A stretch of 36,052 bases of DNA, taken from assembly GCA_031259605.1 (NCBI GenBank), contig JAIRLE010000039.1, forward strand, positions 1 through 36,052, written 5' to 3'. Below, one piece after another: positions 368-7,372 of this stretch. The DNA comes from Zoogloeaceae bacterium (GTDB lineage Bacteria > Pseudomonadota > Gammaproteobacteria > Burkholderiales > Rhodocyclaceae). The notes beneath the pieces are model-generated. The model did not search any database. It was not told the origin of the DNA and saw nothing but the letters and a program-made list of their open reading frames with translations. How positions within the stretch are numbered: the first letter of the stretch is position 1; each line of letters starts with the position of its first letter. The position numbers and the translations under genes are program-made.

Positions 368-1498
368 TCATTCCCACGCCAGGCTTCCCCCCGTCTGATA
401 TTCCGTGACTCTCGTCTCGAAGAAGTTTTTCTCTTTTCGCAGATTGGCCTGTTCATCCAGCCAGGGCAGCGTGGCTTGCGCACCGGGGAAGGGTTCGTCG
501 AGGCCCATCTGGCGGGCGCGGCGGTTGGCGACGAAGCGGAACTGGCCCAGGTGCAGGTCGGCGGAATAGCCGAGGATGGCTTCCTGTAAAATGTAATGGG
601 CATAAGCTTCTTCCGTCGCGTCGGCCTCTGCCCAGAGTTCGGCGACGGCTTTCGGGTCGAGCGTCAGGTTTTCCTCGTGCATCAGTTCGCGGATGACGCG
701 CAGGCCGAAGGCGCAGTGCAGCACCTCGTCGCGCATGATGTACTGGAACTGTTCCGCGGTACCCTTCATCAACCCGCGCCGTTGCAGGGCGAAGATGGGG
801 GAAAAGCCGTTGTAGAACCAGCAGCCCTCGAAAATGCCGGCGAAAAAGAGATAGGACAAGGCAAATTCGTGCAGGGTGTCCCGGTCGCTCAAATCGAGGT
901 CGGAGCGCAGGATTTTTTCCAGTCTCCGGTTGGCGAGCACGATCTTGCCGTGGATGGCGGGCACCACCCGGTAACGGTTGTAGATTTCCTCCTGCTCCAG
1001 ATTCAGGGTTTCGATGCAGTGCTGGTAGGTCCAGGTGTGCAGGGCTTCCTCGAAGACCTGTCGCGCCTGGTAGATCTGCAATTCCGGCGCAGTCATCTTT
1101 TCCATGACCGCGAGACCAATGTTGCGCATGGCGAGGATGTCCGAGGTGGTGAGATAGGCGAGCACGTTCTCGAACATGTGCCGCTCCGCCGCCGTGAGCT
1201 TGTGGTGGTAATCCTGCACATCCTGCGCCATGTTGATTTCCGTGGGCGCCCAGTGATTGCGGTTGGCTTTCAGGAAGAATTCCCAGGCCCAGGGATAGCG
1301 AAAAGGCGCGAGCTGATTGATGTCGCCGTGGCCATTGACCACGCGCTTGTCGGCGGCTTTCACCGGGGCAAGGCCGCCGCCGGGGGGAGCGACGGATTCG
1401 GCGGCGGTCGCGGGTGCGAGGGTAGTCCGGACGGGCGCTTCGGGGGCGGCAACCGCAGGGGTGGGCGCATCGTCCCAGTCATCGAAAAAGGCGTTCAT
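368..1498 (-). CDS. nrdB: Class I ribonucleoside-diphosphate reductase, beta subunit
   Basis: 376 aa. E-x-x-H-x-x-x-Y (EALHTWTY) keeps the metal ligands and the radical Tyr spacing; DEVLHCAFG motif. Strong AGGAGA RBS upstream of ATG. Confidence 0.95.
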   Translation of the reverse strand: MNAFFDDWDDAPTPAVAAPEAPVRTTLAPATAAESVAPPGGGLAPVKAADKRVVNGHGDINQLAPFRYPWAWEFFLKANRNHWAPTEINMAQDVQDYHHKLTAAERHMFENVLAYLTTSDILAMRNIGLAVMEKMTAPELQIYQARQVFEEALHTWTYQHCIETLNLEQEEIYNRYRVVPAIHGKIVLANRRLEKILRSDLDLSDRDTLHEFALSYLFFAGIFEGCWFYNGFSPIFALQRRGLMKGTAEQFQYIMRDEVLHCAFGLRVIRELMHEENLTLDPKAVAELWAEADATEEAYAHYILQEAILGYSADLHLGQFRFVANRRARQMGLDEPFPGAQATLPWLDEQANLRKEKNFFETRVTEYQTGGSLAWE

Positions 1499-1648
1499 CG
1501 GGGTTCTCCTGTAGTGAATCGCATCATTGAAAGTCCGCCGTTATGCGCTGGCCTGTTTTCGCGCTCAGATGGCGCGGACGGCAAATGACCGGGAGGGCGC
1601 GATTCTCCATCTCTGGCGGCCTTGAGCCAAACGACTTCCCCTTGCGCG

Positions 1649-2383
1649 TCATGAGCACTGTCCGACACTTCTGGTCTGCCGCGGATGTTCCGGGCAGCCG
1701 AACAGGTAAAACGTGCCATTGTGGAACAATTTTTCATGAATCACCGTGCCCGGCAATTGCAGGATCAGGCGCATGGGTTTTCCACACTGGTCGCAACGCG
1801 GCTTTTCGGGACTCTGAATCCAGGCGGGGGCAAGGCCGATTCGCGCCTGGTTGATGGGGTCGAATTCAAAGCTCGCGCTACCGGCGCACAGGAGATAAGA
1901 GAGCAGGTCTTCGGGATATGCCGGACAAACGGCGCTCAAGGCCGGACGCAACGCGGGGATATTCTGGATGAGCCGCCTGGGAGAAAAGATGTTCCGTCCC
2001 TTATGCCGTGGAACCGGCACGATCCGGTATGCGCGGCCAAGAAGCGTCGGCGCGGAAACTCGCGCGTCCACGAAATGAAATTCCACCTCCTTGTGGGACG
2101 TCACCTCGATCACCTTGCCGCTCCAGGGGAATCCGGAAAAATCCTCCGGAACCGGCACCAGACAACGCGCCTCGTCCGTTTCGGCATTTCCGCGGGCAAG
2201 CACGTAACCGCCCGGAGATGACGCGCAAAACGTGTCGATGCACGCATAGATGCCTTCCAGTTGTCCGGGCGCGGACGCCGCGACGCACCGGGCGATATGG
2301 CGTCGCTTGCGATTGAACCGGAAAAGGGGAATCCCCAGCGCCGCCATGGCGGCCAGGAGAAGGATGGCAATGAGCGCTTTCAT
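1649..2383 (-). CDS. Hypothetical membrane-anchored protein with C-terminal CxxC putative zinc knuckle (possibly DUF1963/YwqG-like)
   Basis: 244 aa. N-terminal hydrophobic segment MKALIAILLLAAMAALGIPLF. C-terminal ...PAWIQSPEKPRCDQCGKPMRLILQLPG resembles the W-x-Q/CxxC/M-x-QL pattern of YwqG-like proteins. Same strand as nrdA and nrdB. Confidence 0.6.
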   Translation of the reverse strand: MKALIAILLLAAMAALGIPLFRFNRKRRHIARCVAASAPGQLEGIYACIDTFCASSPGGYVLARGNAETDEARCLVPVPEDFSGFPWSGKVIEVTSHKEVEFHFVDARVSAPTLLGRAYRIVPVPRHKGRNIFSPRRLIQNIPALRPALSAVCPAYPEDLLSYLLCAGSASFEFDPINQARIGLAPAWIQSPEKPRCDQCGKPMRLILQLPGTVIHEKLFHNGTFYLFGCPEHPRQTRSVGQCS

Positions 2384-2420
2384 CGAAAGACGGGCGCGTT
2401 TGGGGTCAAAACGACAACTT

Positions 2421-2520
2421 CGTCATTGCGGGGGCCGAAGGTCCGTGGCAATCCAGATGGCCTTGCAGGTTGCCGGAACGCTTCATGGATTGCCGCGGCG
2501 CTGCGCGCCTCGCAATGACG
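2421..2520. repeat. Palindromic MITE-like intergenic repeat
   Basis: Terminal inverted repeat cgtcattgcg (2421-2430) / cgcaatgacg (2511-2520). Imperfect inverted arms extend ~36 nt (…gtggcaatccagatgg / ctTCATGGATTGCCGCGG…). Confidence 0.75.
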
Positions 2521-2540
2521 ATGGTTTTGAGGTGGGTTCA

Positions 2541-2569
2541 TCTGTCCTCTGTCTTCTGTCTTCCGTCCC
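2541..2569. repeat. Short degenerate tandem repeat (tctgtc-type units)
   Basis: tctgtcctctgtcttctgtcttccgtccc, just 3' of the nrdA stop codon. Confidence 0.5.
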
Positions 2570-2573
2570 CCGA

Positions 2574-5387
2574 TCACTGGCACGCCTCGCAATCCGGATT
2601 GTCGATGGAACAAAAGCGCGGCGCTTCGGCATACGCTTCTGATTCCTGATCCCTGATTTCCGATCCCTGATCCAGCTTTTCCGCCTGCGAAGCGCCCAGG
2701 GTGCGCAAGTAGTAGGTGGTCTTCAGGCCCTTCGTCCAGGCGAGTTTGTAGAGTTCGTCCAGTTTCTTCCCGGAAGGCGCGGCAAGATAGAGGTTCAGCG
2801 ACTGCGCTTGATCGATCCATTTCTGCCGTCTCGATGCGGCTTCCACCAGCCATTTTGGGTCGATTTCAAAGGCGGTGGCGTAGCGTTTCTTCAAGTCTTC
2901 CGGCACCCGGTCGATGCGGGCGATGGAACCGTCGAAGTACTTCAGGTCGGCCACCATCACCGTGTCCCACAGACCGTGTTCCTTCAGTTCGCGCGCCAGA
3001 TGTTCGTTGATGATGGTGAATTCGCCGGAAAGATTGGATTTCACGTAGAGATTCTGGTATTCCGGCTCGATGCCTTGCGAGACGCCGACGATGTTGGAAA
3101 TGGTTGCGGTCGGGGCAATGGCGACGCAGTTGGAATTGCGCATCCCCACTTCCCGGATGCGGGCGCGCAGGCGTTCCCAATCGAGGGTGGCGCTTCTGTC
3201 CTGGTCGATGGGCGCGCCGCGTTCGGCTTCCAAAAGCGCGATGGAATCGAGCGGCAGGATGCCTTGATCCCACAGGCTGCCGGGAAAACTCGAATAGCGC
3301 CCGCGCTCCACGGCGAGATCGGTGGAGGCCCAGTAGGCCAGATAGCAGACGGTTTCCATCGCGCGGTCGGCAAAGAGCGCCGCTTCTTCCGAGGCATAGG
3401 GCAGGCGCAAGAGATGCAGGCAATCCGAAAAGCCCATGATGCCCAGACCCACGGGTCGATGGCGCAGATTGGCGGCTCTCGCCTTGGCGGTGGCGTAGAA
3501 ATTGATGTCGATCACGTTATCCAGCATCCGCATGGCCGTGCCGATGGTGCGGGAGAGTTTTTCCATGTCGAGCCGCCCGTCTTTCAAGTGCGCGGGCAGG
3601 TTGATGGAACCCAGGTTGCAGACGCCGGTTTCCGCATTCGAGGTGTTGAGGGTGATCTCGGTGCACAGGTTGGAACTGTGCACCACGCCCGCGTGTCGCT
3701 GCGGCGAGCGCAGGTTGCAGGGGTCCTTGAAGGTGATCCAGGGATGCCCGGTCTCGAAAAGGAGCGTGAGCATACGCCGCCAAAGCTGCACGGCGGGCAG
3801 CTTGCGAAAGAGCTTGATCTCGCCGCGCGCCGCCTTTTCTTCGTAAGCGAGATAACTTTGCGCGAAGGCGCGCCCGAATTTTTCGTGCAGATCGGGCGTC
3901 TCGTCGGGGGAAAAGAGCGTCCATTCGCCGTTTGCCAGCACCCGTTCCATGAACAGATCGGGAATCCAGTGCGCGGTGTTCATGTCGTGACAGCGGCGGC
4001 GCTCGTCACCCGTGTTCTTCCTCAGTTCCAGGAATTCCTCGATGTCCAGGTGCCAGGTTTCCAGATAGGCGCAGACCGCGCCCTTTCGCTTGCCGCCCTG
4101 ATTGACCGCCACCGCCGTGTCGTTGACCACCTTCAGGAAGGGAATCACGCCCTGGCTCTTGCCGTTCGTGCCCTTGATGCGGCTGCCCAGCGCGCGGATT
4201 GGCGTCCAGTCGTTGCCCAGGCCGCCTGCGTATTTTTGCAGCAGGGCGTTTTCCTTCAGGCTCTGGTAGATGTCCTCCAGATCGTCGGAGACCGTGGTCA
4301 GGTAGCAGGAGGAAAGCTGGGAATGCCGGGTGCCGGAATTGAACAGGGTCGGCGTCGAGCACATGAAATCGAAACGGGAAATGAGATCGTAGAATTCGAT
4401 GGCGCGCGCCTCCCGATCAATCTCGTTCAACGCCAGCCCCATCGCCACGCGCATGAAGAAAATCTGCGGCAGTTCGATGCGGCGCTCCTCGATGTGCAGG
4501 AAATAGCGGTCGTAGAGGGTTTGCAGGCCGAGGTAGGTAAATTGCAGGTCGCGCCCGGAATCGAGCGCCGCCGCGAGACGTTCGAGGTCGAATTCGGCAA
4601 GGCGGGGATCGAGGAGTTCGGTTTCGACGCCCAGTCTCACGAAACGGGGGAAATAATCCTTCATTGCCGCTGCCGCCGTTTCCGGGGAGATTCCCTGGCC
4701 GGTTTCCCGTCCGAGTACCTCCTCGCGCAGCGCGAAGAGGGTAAGCCGCGCCGTCACCTTGTCATAGACCGGGTCCTGCTCGATCAGGGTGCGCGCGGCG
4801 AGGGTGAGCGCCGTGTAGACCTCGGAGAGCGGCATGTTGTCGTAGAGATTCTTCAGCGTCAGTTCCAGCACGGCCTCGGCGTTGGCCTCGTCCATCCCGT
4901 CGCAGGCGGAGGCAAGACGCGCGCGCAGGGCGGCGACATCCAGCGGACGCCGCTCGCCCGCCACGGTGACATGGATGCCGGAATCGGTCGTCTTGCTCTG
5001 CCGGGCTTCCTGAGCGGCGCGTTCCTCGGCGCGGCGCTCGCGGTAGAGCACGTAGGCGCGCGCCACATCGTGCTCGCCCGCGCGCATCAAGGCCAGTTCC
5101 ACCTGATCCTGTATCGTTTCGATATGCACCGTGCCGCCCGCCGGACGACGGCGGATCAGGGCTTCCACCACATTGCGGGTCAGACGCGCCACCACCTCCC
5201 GAACACGGACGGAAGTGGCGCTCTGCGCGCCTTCCACGGCGAGGAACGCCTTGGTCAGGGCAAGCGCGATTTTTTCGGATTGAAAGGCGGCAATCGCCCC
5301 GTTGCGGCGAATGACTTCCAGACTGGCGGTATGCGCCTCGGCGGCTTCCTCTGTGGCGTTCCCCGGAACTGATGAATTGTGCGGCAT
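2574..5387 (-). CDS. nrdA: Class I ribonucleoside-diphosphate reductase, alpha subunit (apparently two N-terminal ATP-cone-like segments)
   Basis: ORF to 5498, but the likely start is MPHNSSVPGNATEE (ATG 5387), downstream of the riboswitch. ATP-cone-like LEVIRRNGAIAAFQSEKIALAL and a second related segment; STPTLFNSGT, SSCYLT, NLCTEI and NCVAIAPTATIS motifs; C-terminal DCEAC redox pair. Confidence 0.95.
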   Translation of the reverse strand: MPHNSSVPGNATEEAAEAHTASLEVIRRNGAIAAFQSEKIALALTKAFLAVEGAQSATSVRVREVVARLTRNVVEALIRRRPAGGTVHIETIQDQVELALMRAGEHDVARAYVLYRERRAEERAAQEARQSKTTDSGIHVTVAGERRPLDVAALRARLASACDGMDEANAEAVLELTLKNLYDNMPLSEVYTALTLAARTLIEQDPVYDKVTARLTLFALREEVLGRETGQGISPETAAAAMKDYFPRFVRLGVETELLDPRLAEFDLERLAAALDSGRDLQFTYLGLQTLYDRYFLHIEERRIELPQIFFMRVAMGLALNEIDREARAIEFYDLISRFDFMCSTPTLFNSGTRHSQLSSCYLTTVSDDLEDIYQSLKENALLQKYAGGLGNDWTPIRALGSRIKGTNGKSQGVIPFLKVVNDTAVAVNQGGKRKGAVCAYLETWHLDIEEFLELRKNTGDERRRCHDMNTAHWIPDLFMERVLANGEWTLFSPDETPDLHEKFGRAFAQSYLAYEEKAARGEIKLFRKLPAVQLWRRMLTLLFETGHPWITFKDPCNLRSPQRHAGVVHSSNLCTEITLNTSNAETGVCNLGSINLPAHLKDGRLDMEKLSRTIGTAMRMLDNVIDINFYATAKARAANLRHRPVGLGIMGFSDCLHLLRLPYASEEAALFADRAMETVCYLAYWASTDLAVERGRYSSFPGSLWDQGILPLDSIALLEAERGAPIDQDRSATLDWERLRARIREVGMRNSNCVAIAPTATISNIVGVSQGIEPEYQNLYVKSNLSGEFTIINEHLARELKEHGLWDTVMVADLKYFDGSIARIDRVPEDLKKRYATAFEIDPKWLVEAASRRQKWIDQAQSLNLYLAAPSGKKLDELYKLAWTKGLKTTYYLRTLGASQAEKLDQGSEIRDQESEAYAEAPRFCSIDNPDCEACQ
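2637..2672. repeat. Short degenerate tandem repeat inside the 3' end of nrdA
   Basis: tctgattcctgatccctgatttccgatccctgatcc; translated on the minus strand as DQGSEIRDQESEA in the NrdA C-terminal linker. Confidence 0.5.
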
Positions 5388-5504
5388 GTTTTCCAATACT
5401 CCCCGTAGGCGTGTGGCAAGCGGGGGGGACTGGCGGATGGCGCGCGGCAAGCCGCGAAAAGCCACCGTCCGGAAAGACGCCCCGCTTCCCGAAGACAATC
5501 AAAA

Positions 5505-5661
5505 TGCGCGGCAGGTTTCCTGGCTCTCGGGTCGCCGCCTTGCGCCCGCCTTCCCGGAAAAGTCCAGTGACAGGACATGGCCTCGAATGACGCAAGACTC
5601 GCCGACTACAGTTGCGGGGGCAGCTCCGGCATGAAGACCATAAAATCCACCGGATTCCCTT
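5505..5661 (-). promoter_or_regulatory. Cobalamin (B12) riboswitch in the nrdA leader
   Basis: Minus strand: AAGGGAATCCGGTG…GCTGCCCCCGCAACTGT…GTCACTGG…GGGAAGGCGGGC…GACCCGAGAGCCAGGAAACCTGCCG. The B12 box GAGCCAGGAAACCTGCCG (5526-5509) fits the rAGYCMGgAgaCCkGCcd consensus. Confidence 0.93.
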
Positions 5662-5677
5662 GACCGCGCGAGGGCGA

Positions 5678-5706
5678 AGTCTAGGAGTGAGGCGAAACAC
5701 TGTCAA
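5678..5706 (-). promoter_or_regulatory. Sigma70-type promoter for nrdA
   Basis: Minus strand TTGACA (5706-5701), 17 nt spacer, TAGACT (5683-5678), immediately upstream of the riboswitch. Confidence 0.75.
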
Positions 5707-5714
5707 GGAGAAAA

Positions 5715-5730
5715 ACACAATATATAGTGG
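5715..5730. promoter_or_regulatory. NrdR box 1
   Basis: acacaatatatagtgg matches the NrdR consensus acaCwAtATaTwGtgt at 15/16 positions. Confidence 0.85.
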
Positions 5731-5745
5731 TTTGTTGATTAGGAT

Positions 5746-5761
5746 CAACTAGATATAGTGC
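5746..5761. promoter_or_regulatory. NrdR box 2
   Basis: caactagatatagtgc keeps the core CtAgATaTaGtg. Start lies 31 bp from box 1, about three helical turns. Confidence 0.8.
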
Positions 5762-5899: not shown

Positions 5900-7372
5900 T
5901 CACGGCGGCAACAATTCGAGTTTTAGCTCACCTTTGTCTTGCGGCAACGCGTTGCCGCCTTCGACGCTCACGGCTTCCGCCTGTTCCAGCAAACGTTGAT
6001 TGGCATTGCGCAGGCGGGCGATGATCTTGGCGATCAGGGCGTTGCGCATGCGTTCCTGGAGTTCATCCGAGGCCATCGCCAGCGCCGGACCGCTGATTTC
6101 CACGAAGAGGCAAGGTTCCAGCGTCACCACTGTCGCGCCGCGCTTGCCTTCGGCGGGAGAAAGATAGGCCATTTCACCAATGACCTCGCCCGCGCCCAGG
6201 CGACACAGCATCTTGCCTTCGCGCGAGACTTCCACCTGGCCCGAAACCAGGATGCCGAAACGCCGGTCTTCCTCGCCTTCCCGCATCAGGGCGACGTTGG
6301 CGCCAATGTTGCGCCACACCGCGGAGCGCAGGATTTCCCACAATTCCACGTTTTCAAATTCAAGGAAAAACTCCAGCTTGCGCAGGGCTGAAAAATGTTC
6401 ATTATCCTGCCGCGCGTGGTCTTCGTTGTCGGTCATGATCTTGTAGCGCACCGAAGACAATTCCTTGGCAAATTCCGCGCCATTGCTGTAGCGGCTGTAG
6501 AGATTCTTTTCCAGCGCCTTCTTGAGAATGGCGTCGAGCTTGACGGGCACATTGGGATTCATGCGCGAGGCCAACGGCGGGTCCATGTTCATGATTTTGT
6601 ACACCAGCGTTGCCTGATCCTGCGCCCGGAAAGGCAAGCGCCCGGTGAGCATCTGAAACAGCACCACGCCCAAAGAATAGAGGTCGGTCTTCTGGTTCAG
6701 CGGGTATGCCTTGATTTGCTCCGGCGACATGTAGGCCGGGGAACCCACGCCCATCACAAAGGTGGAATCCCGATCCATGTCCTTGTTGATGTTGATCGCC
6801 AGGCCGAAATCGGCAATCTTGGGGTTGTCTTCCTGATCCACCAGAATGTTGGCGGGCTTGATGTCGCGGTGGATGACGCCTTGGCGATAGGCATGGTCCA
6901 GCGCCATGCAACACTTGAAAATAATGCCGATGGTGCGATGTAGGGGCAACAGGCGGTCGATGTGGCAGAATTCTTCCAGGGAAACGCCATTCACGTATTC
7001 CATGGCGATATACGCTTGGTTCTCCTGGACTTCGGCGTCATAGACGCGCACGATATTGGGATGGTCGAGCCGCTCGGAAATCATGCGCTCCGTGCGAAAG
7101 AGCTTGCGCAAGCGCCGGGAGACCGCCAGGTTCTTGTGGTTGAACTGCACCACCTTGACCGCCACCTGCCGGTCAACGTCCGGGTCCTGGCAAAGGTATA
7201 CCACGGCGGTCGCGCCCTTGCCCAATTCCCGGATGATGTGATATTTGCCAATACTTTCCATGTCGCCAAATCCAGTTGCCTGCCGACGCAGCGTGTCCGA
7301 AACAGGGATGCTAACAAAATCCTGCCCCGGCTTGAAAAAACTTTTTTCATCCCCATAACCCGGAATATTCAT
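5900..7372 (-). CDS. Hanks-type serine/threonine protein kinase with C-terminal cyclic-nucleotide-binding-like domain
   Basis: 490 aa. [47 protein letters not shown]-terminal [33 protein letters not shown] is cNBD-like. The true start could be a later Met ([16 protein letters not shown]). Confidence 0.9.
7331..7358 (+). promoter_or_regulatory. Sigma32-like heat-shock promoter upstream of grpE
   Basis: CTTGAAA (7331-7337), 13 nt, CCCCATAA (7351-7358), against consensus CTTGAAA-N11-16-CCCCATNT. Confidence 0.8.

What the first reader, a model, noticed from the sequence alone, without database searches (positions are those of the whole stretch)
5678..5761. Layered nrdAB control region: two NrdR boxes exactly 31 bp apart, abutting a TTGACA-N17-TAGACT promoter and then the riboswitch
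acacaatatatagtgg and caactagatatagtgc match the NrdR box. Their starts are 31 bp apart (about three helical turns), the spacing described for NrdR sites. They lie just upstream of the -35 element, and the riboswitch begins about 17 nt downstream of the -10. One transcript would integrate dNTP/ATP status through NrdR and cobalamin status through the RNA.
Basis: partly seen in the sequence, partly recalled or inferred. Interest (0 to 1): 0.72.

Follow-up and report, generated by a model that had tools for sequence, protein, structure and literature searches.

The report
Two-layer control of nrdAB
In front of the oxygen-dependent DNA-building-block enzyme (nrdAB) of a beta-proteobacterium lie two binding sites for the repressor NrdR, a promoter and a vitamin-B12 RNA switch; the set is real and conserved in relatives, and a similar double control was already known from actinobacteria.

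Summary
Box 5715-5730 (2 mismatches to ACACTATATATAGTGT) is the only site with 3 or fewer mismatches in the 2.36-Mb genome. Box 5746-5761 (4 mismatches) starts exactly 31 bp away. A TTGACA-N17-TAGACT promoter follows 8 bp downstream on the minus strand, then an Rfam cobalamin riboswitch (87.6 bits), then nrdA. No shuffled sequence reaches the pair (0/5000). A strict pair pattern run over 21 congeneric genomes hits nrdA and nrdJ leaders plus two stray loci; the reversed control gives none. In ten aligned congeners the 31-bp spacing, both critical C/G contacts, the -35 and the -10 are kept while the sequence between them drifts. The genome encodes an intact NrdR and a B12-dependent class II RNR (nrdJ) with its own NrdR pair. 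In the genus, all 9 genomes with both enzymes carry the riboswitch; in 3 genomes where nrdJ is not found it is gone, deleted in its core, or mutated, while boxes and promoter persist. Best reading: NrdR represses transcription when dATP is high; B12 blocks nrdAB translation when NrdJ can work. NrdR plus riboswitch on nrdAB is documented in Propionibacterium acnes, so this is a betaproteobacterial member of a known kind. TSS, NrdR binding and B12 response are untested here.

The parts
5746..5761 (-). upstream NrdR box, GCACTATATCTAGTTG in the orientation of transcription
   Evidence: C4/G13 contact bases kept in 10 of 10 aligned congeners
5715..5730 (-). downstream NrdR box, CCACTATATATTGTGT
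   Evidence: only match with 3 or fewer mismatches in the whole genome; C4/G13 kept in 10 of 10 aligned congeners
5701..5706 (-). -35 element TTGACA, 8 bp downstream of the box pair
   Evidence: 5 of 6 columns invariant in 10 congeners
5678..5683 (-). -10 element TAGACT (N17 spacer)
   Evidence: 5 of 6 columns invariant in 10 congeners
5493..5683 (-). cobalamin riboswitch aptamer (RF00174, 87.6 bits); B12 box about 5512-5525, loop L5 about 5612-5623
   Evidence: conserved in genus and in Rhodocyclaceae
5478..5489 (-). hairpin loop L13 GGAAGCGGGGCG: GCGGGG complementary both to L5 CCCCCGC and to the downstream C-run
5418..5429 (-). platform C-run TCCCCCCCGCTT, able to pair with L13 or with the Shine-Dalgarno
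5399..5404 (-). Shine-Dalgarno-like GGGGAG of nrdA
2574..5387 (-). nrdA, class I RNR alpha subunit (937 aa from ATG)
   Evidence: PRK07207 1651 bits, Ribonuc_red_lgC, ATP-cone
368..1498 (-). nrdB, class I RNR beta subunit (376 aa)

Best explanation
This is the control region of a class I ribonucleotide reductase operon with two independent sensors in series. (1) When dATP is plentiful, an NrdR tetramer binds both boxes, which sit on one face of the helix 31 bp apart just upstream of the -35, bends the DNA and lowers initiation at the TTGACA-N17-TAGACT promoter. (2) The leader begins at or next to the aptamer of a cobalamin riboswitch. With B12 bound, loop L5 (CCCCCGC) kisses loop L13 (GCGGGG), the downstream C-run is freed to pair with the Shine-Dalgarno GGGGAG, and nrdA is not translated. 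Without B12, L13 pairs with the C-run and the ribosome site opens. The B12-independent enzyme is thus made when dNTPs are short and the B12-dependent NrdJ cannot work; nrdJ itself carries NrdR boxes but no riboswitch. Shown: sequence elements, their conservation, presence of NrdR and NrdJ, co-loss of riboswitch and nrdJ. Inferred: binding, TSS, direction of both responses, and translational rather than transcriptional output.
For: Box pair beyond chance. A strict pair pattern over 21 genomes hits nrdA and nrdJ leaders plus two stray loci, with 0 hits for the reversed control. Intact NrdR with C3/C6/C31/C34, D15, R17 and RRRR, the residues that contact zinc and DNA in PMC9110341 and PMC12176259. 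15-16 bp between boxes is the standard NrdR spacing (PMC12051234). Boxes, -35 and -10 conserved while spacers drift. Riboswitch conserved. nrdJ present, with its own NrdR pair in the genus. Riboswitch on nrdA in 9 of 9 congeners with nrdJ and intact in 0 of 3 where nrdJ is not found, Fisher p 0.005 (0.014 with the 57%-complete genome added); 12 of 12 riboswitch-bearing against 10 of 18 riboswitch-less further genomes have nrdJ, p 0.007. L13, C-run and Shine-Dalgarno complementarity recurs in the relatives examined.
Against: No measurement of NrdR binding, TSS or B12 response. Box B is a weaker match (4 mismatches). Both boxes lie upstream of the -35 rather than over the promoter as in most described NrdR targets. 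Two of 13 congeneric nrdA leaders depart: G007 has no box pair, G016 has a degenerate upstream box. The plain MFE fold of the leader is not better than shuffles (z -0.45). The three genomes without nrdJ are 73-91% complete drafts.
Confidence: 0.85

Rival explanations
1. The functional NrdR-controlled promoter is a second one that overlaps the boxes (TTGATC 5748-5743, N18, TATATT 5724-5719), so NrdR works by simple occlusion as in nrdJ, and TTGACA-N17-TAGACT is a separate, NrdR-insensitive promoter.
For: It scores 9 of 12, lies over both boxes, and its sequence is kept in the closest relatives. In nrdJ leaders of the genus a weak -35 lies between the boxes and the -10 touches the second box (partly by eye).
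Against: Its -35 is not kept in G004, G009, G010, G003 or G006, whereas TTGACA and TAGACT/TACACT are. Its -10 is part of the NrdR palindrome, so its conservation has another cause.
Confidence: 0.12
2. The pair is a fossil or a chance AT-rich palindrome and only the riboswitch matters.
For: Box B has 4 mismatches; G007 has a riboswitch but no boxes.
Against: Chance excluded. The boxes persist even in G015, G019 and G001, where the riboswitch has decayed, so they appear to be under selection on their own.
Confidence: 0.03
3. The riboswitch acts by transcription termination rather than by masking the ribosome site.
For: A weak terminator-like site at 5479-5466 was found; much transcription of the P. 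acnes nrdAB operon, which has the riboswitch, ends before the first gene (PMC3848588).
Against: The site is within shuffle expectation (1 found, mean 0.5 in shuffles). Complementarity of L13, C-run and Shine-Dalgarno recurs across relatives.
Confidence: 0.15

Closest known systems
Propionibacterium (Cutibacterium) acnes nrdAB (PMC3848588)
   Same: nrdAB with an NrdR box at the promoter, a cobalamin riboswitch in the leader, and a separately encoded NrdR-controlled nrdJ
   Different: one box overlapping the promoter instead of two upstream of it; transcripts appear to end early; actinobacterium, nrdR in operon with nrdJ
Streptomyces coelicolor nrdABS (riboswitch: Borovok 2006, cited in PMC4991794; NrdR: PMC9110341)
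   Same: class I operon under a coenzyme-B12 riboswitch and bound by NrdR, together with an NrdR-bound nrdRJ operon
   Different: different phylum; nrdABS instead of nrdA...nrdB; NrdR boxes described in general as often overlapping the RNA polymerase site
Streptococcus pneumoniae nrdHEF NrdR boxes (PMC12051234)
   Same: both -35 and -10 lie downstream of the last NrdR box
   Different: 24-26 bp between boxes, class Ib, no B12 riboswitch mentioned
nrdJ leader of the same genome (G000 C43; L004)
   Same: tandem NrdR boxes, 32 bp apart
   Different: no cobalamin riboswitch found; a weak promoter appears to lie inside and over the pair

Membership tests
NrdR binding site (NrdR-box pair) | two 16-bp palindromes close to ACACTATATATAGTGT with C4 and G13 | tested here: met
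   2 and 4 mismatches, C4/G13 in both boxes
NrdR binding site (NrdR-box pair) | 15-16 bp between boxes (31-32 bp start to start) | tested here: met
   31 bp; standard spacing per PMC12051234
NrdR binding site (NrdR-box pair) | upstream of RNR genes in a genome with nrdR | tested here: met
   nrdA/nrdB; NrdR 155 aa with zinc and DNA-contact residues
[quoted passage not shown]
   needs MST, EMSA or reporter assays
NrdR binding site (NrdR-box pair) | boxes overlap the RNA polymerase site (usual, but not a defining feature) | tested here: not met
   the pair ends 8 bp upstream of the -35; S. pneumoniae nrdHEF is a precedent for this
Cobalamin riboswitch (RF00174) | covariance model match above the gathering score with conserved core and B12 box | tested here: met
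   87.6 bits against 31.5
Cobalamin riboswitch (RF00174) | L5-L13 kissing complementarity and an expression platform | tested here: met
   CCCCCGC and GCGGGG, with a C-run and Shine-Dalgarno, across relatives; complementarity only, no probing
Cobalamin riboswitch (RF00174) | binds B12 and changes expression | not testable with these tools
   needs in-line probing or a reporter
B12-independent isozyme under B12 riboswitch | a B12-dependent isozyme (nrdJ) in the same genome | tested here: met
   co-occurrence tests

The most novel reading that the evidence does not exclude
In Rhodocyclaceae the riboswitch and a separate promoter lie downstream of the NrdR boxes, so NrdR bound wholly upstream of the -35 modulates or even assists this promoter instead of occluding it, while it occludes the nrdJ promoter; the two enzymes would then respond differently to the same dATP signal.
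Probability: 0.12. Interest if true: 0.55.

Novelty: new member of a known kind. Interest (0 to 1): 0.4.

Why it matters
It shows that stacking a nucleotide-sensing repressor on a B12-sensing RNA in front of nrdAB, known from actinobacteria, also exists as a compact, well-conserved module in betaproteobacteria (Rhodocyclaceae and some others). The genus is a natural experiment: where nrdJ is not found the riboswitch has decayed in different ways (complete loss, core deletion, core mutations) while the NrdR boxes and promoter stay. That is evolutionary support for the idea that such riboswitches exist to choose between RNR isozymes, and it separates the selective reasons for the two layers.

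Tried and rejected
I tested whether the nrdA promoter came with the other cobalamin riboswitches of the genome; they do not share TTGACA-N17-TAGACT. I looked for NrdR boxes at nrdR itself: none with 4 or fewer mismatches in L001, consistent with the reported lack of NrdR autoregulation in Proteobacteria (PMC5343134). A class III RNR (nrdD) was sought and not found in the genome. A plain MFE fold of the leader was uninformative (z -0.45). G020 (57% complete) carries a riboswitch with no nrdJ found, but its nrdA groups with other genera, so I give statistics with and without it. The strict pair pattern misses true weaker pairs (for example G019), so its hit list is a lower bound.

Full report
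WHAT IS THERE. The region lies between a protein-kinase/cNMP-domain gene (5900-7372, minus) and nrdA (ATG at 5387, minus). Both neighbouring genes read leftwards, so there is no divergent gene for the boxes to serve. In transcription order: NrdR box GCACTATATCTAGTTG (5761-5746), 15 bp, NrdR box CCACTATATATTGTGT (5730-5715), 8 bp, TTGACA (5706-5701), 17 bp, TAGACT (5683-5678), predicted +1 about 5671, cobalamin aptamer (RF00174, 5683-5493, 87.6 bits), L13 hairpin, C-run, GGGGAG, nrdA. nrdA is PRK07207 (1651 bits) with an ATP-cone; nrdB follows at 1498-368.

CHANCE. The downstream box is the sole site with 3 or fewer mismatches to ACACTATATATAGTGT in the window and in the whole 2.36-Mb genome. 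No shuffle of 5000 reaches the observed pair. A strict gapped pattern for a tandem pair (18 fixed bases) was run on 21 congeneric genomes. In the window's genome it hits only the nrdA and nrdJ leaders; across the genus it hits nrdA or nrdJ leaders plus two other places (G014 C108, G006 C95). The reversed control pattern hits nothing in any of the 21.

COMPARATIVE EVIDENCE. nrdA leaders were collected from 13 congeneric genomes and from other genera. In ten aligned congeners (G000, G001, G002, G003, G004, G006, G009, G010, G015, G019) the box spacing is 31 bp every time; C4 and G13, the base pairs whose inversion costs NrdR at least 50-fold in binding (PMC9110341), are kept in both boxes of all ten; -35 and -10 are 97% conserved; the sequence between the boxes, between box and -35, and within the promoter spacer is only 53-57% conserved. 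Exceptions: G016 (32 bp, upstream box degenerate), G020 (32 bp) and G007 (riboswitch but no pair). The nrdA genes of G007 and G020 group with Dechloromonas, Azonexus and Zoogloea in the tree, not with their genus, suggesting transfer or binning error. Outside the genus, cobalamin riboswitches in front of nrdA occur in Azospira, Dechloromonas, Azonexus, Zoogloea, Pseudothauera, Thauera (about 0.8 kb upstream there), Tepidiphilus, Methylobacillus and a Methylomicrobium-labelled MAG. Tepidiphilus has the same order of box pair, 7 bp, TTGACA-N18-TAGACT and riboswitch.

THE PARTNER ENZYME. The genome has an intact NrdR (155 aa; C3, C6, C31, C34, D15, R17, RRRR) and a class II NrdJ, and no nrdD was found. 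nrdJ leaders of the genus carry NrdR pairs 31-32 bp apart. Riboswitch and nrdJ go together. In the genus the nine genomes with both nrdA and nrdJ all have the nrdA riboswitch; in the three where nrdJ is not found (G001, G015, G019) it is absent, mutated in the conserved core (31.3 bits, CCCCCGCAACTGTA changed to CCCTTGCAATGGGC), or has lost about 130 nt of its core. Fisher p is 0.005, or 0.014 counting the 57%-complete G020. G015 lies apart from the other two in the nrdA tree, so at least two losses are likely. Across 30 further genomes, 12 of 12 with the riboswitch have a class II RNR against 10 of 18 without it, p 0.007; one of these, G041, appears to be the same genome as G009, and these tests do not correct for shared ancestry. 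In all three decayed cases the NrdR boxes and promoter remain; in G001 the pair is weaker (12 mismatches in all, reached by 14 of 1000 shuffles).

HOW IT WORKS. NrdR tetramers bind two boxes three turns apart when loaded with dATP plus ATP and are thought to block RNA polymerase by occupancy and sharp bending (PMC9110341). Here the pair sits upstream of the -35, centred near -52 and -83 relative to the predicted start. This is less usual than overlap but has a precedent in S. pneumoniae nrdHEF (PMC12051234). In the RNA, the L13 loop GCGGGG, kept in the relatives examined, can pair either with L5 CCCCCGC (kissing loop, B12-bound form) or with a downstream C-run that otherwise covers the Shine-Dalgarno; the same three-way complementarity recurs in relatives although the exact letters change. 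This favours translational control. CobS was not found in this genome and a second riboswitch precedes a TonB-receptor/B12-binding-protein pair (named by eye), so the B12 sensed may be scavenged; this is inference from a 94%-complete draft.

WHAT IS KNOWN. NrdR boxes plus a cobalamin riboswitch on nrdAB are described for P. acnes (PMC3848588). The S. coelicolor nrdABS operon has the riboswitch (Borovok 2006, cited in PMC4991794) and is bound by NrdR (PMC9110341). B12 riboswitches on isozymes of B12-dependent enzymes are an established class (PMC3766115), and NrdR regulons are mapped across Proteobacteria (PMC5343134). In the papers I could search I found no description of the betaproteobacterial module or of its coupled decay with nrdJ, but that search is limited to open-licence full text.

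VERDICT. Observation confirmed; interpretation supported on comparative grounds; kind already known; modest new content in the conserved geometry and in the evolutionary uncoupling of the two layers.

Noticed in passing
L138 2716-2758 (G006 C95:11215-11257, minus): A good tandem NrdR pair with TTGACA between the boxes lies directly upstream of a gene that looks, by eye, like an MBL-fold protein, not an RNR; possible extra NrdR target or relic.
   Followed up: partly
L137 2150-2192 (G014 C108:8649-8691): NrdR pair nearly identical to the nrdA pair of G010, in a genome where no nrdA was found and in front of an unrelated gene: looks like the remnant of a lost nrdAB control region.
   Followed up: partly
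window 1499-2573: nrdA and nrdB are separated by about 1.1 kb holding an ORF of 244 aa without Pfam match (1649-2383) and an inverted-repeat element with CGTCATTGCG ends (2421-2520).
   Followed up: partly
L012 4350-4690 and L034 1168-1560: Riboswitch remnants in genomes where nrdJ is not found: core deletion with mutated B12 box (G019) and point changes in the L5 core (G015).
   Followed up: yes
L020, L036: nrdA of G007 and G020 groups with other genera and carries a different type of leader; transfer or binning error.
   Followed up: partly
G000 C19:8643-8860 and C15:554-761: Two further cobalamin riboswitches; the first precedes a TonB-receptor/B12-binding-protein pair, the second lies near a contig edge.
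   Followed up: partly
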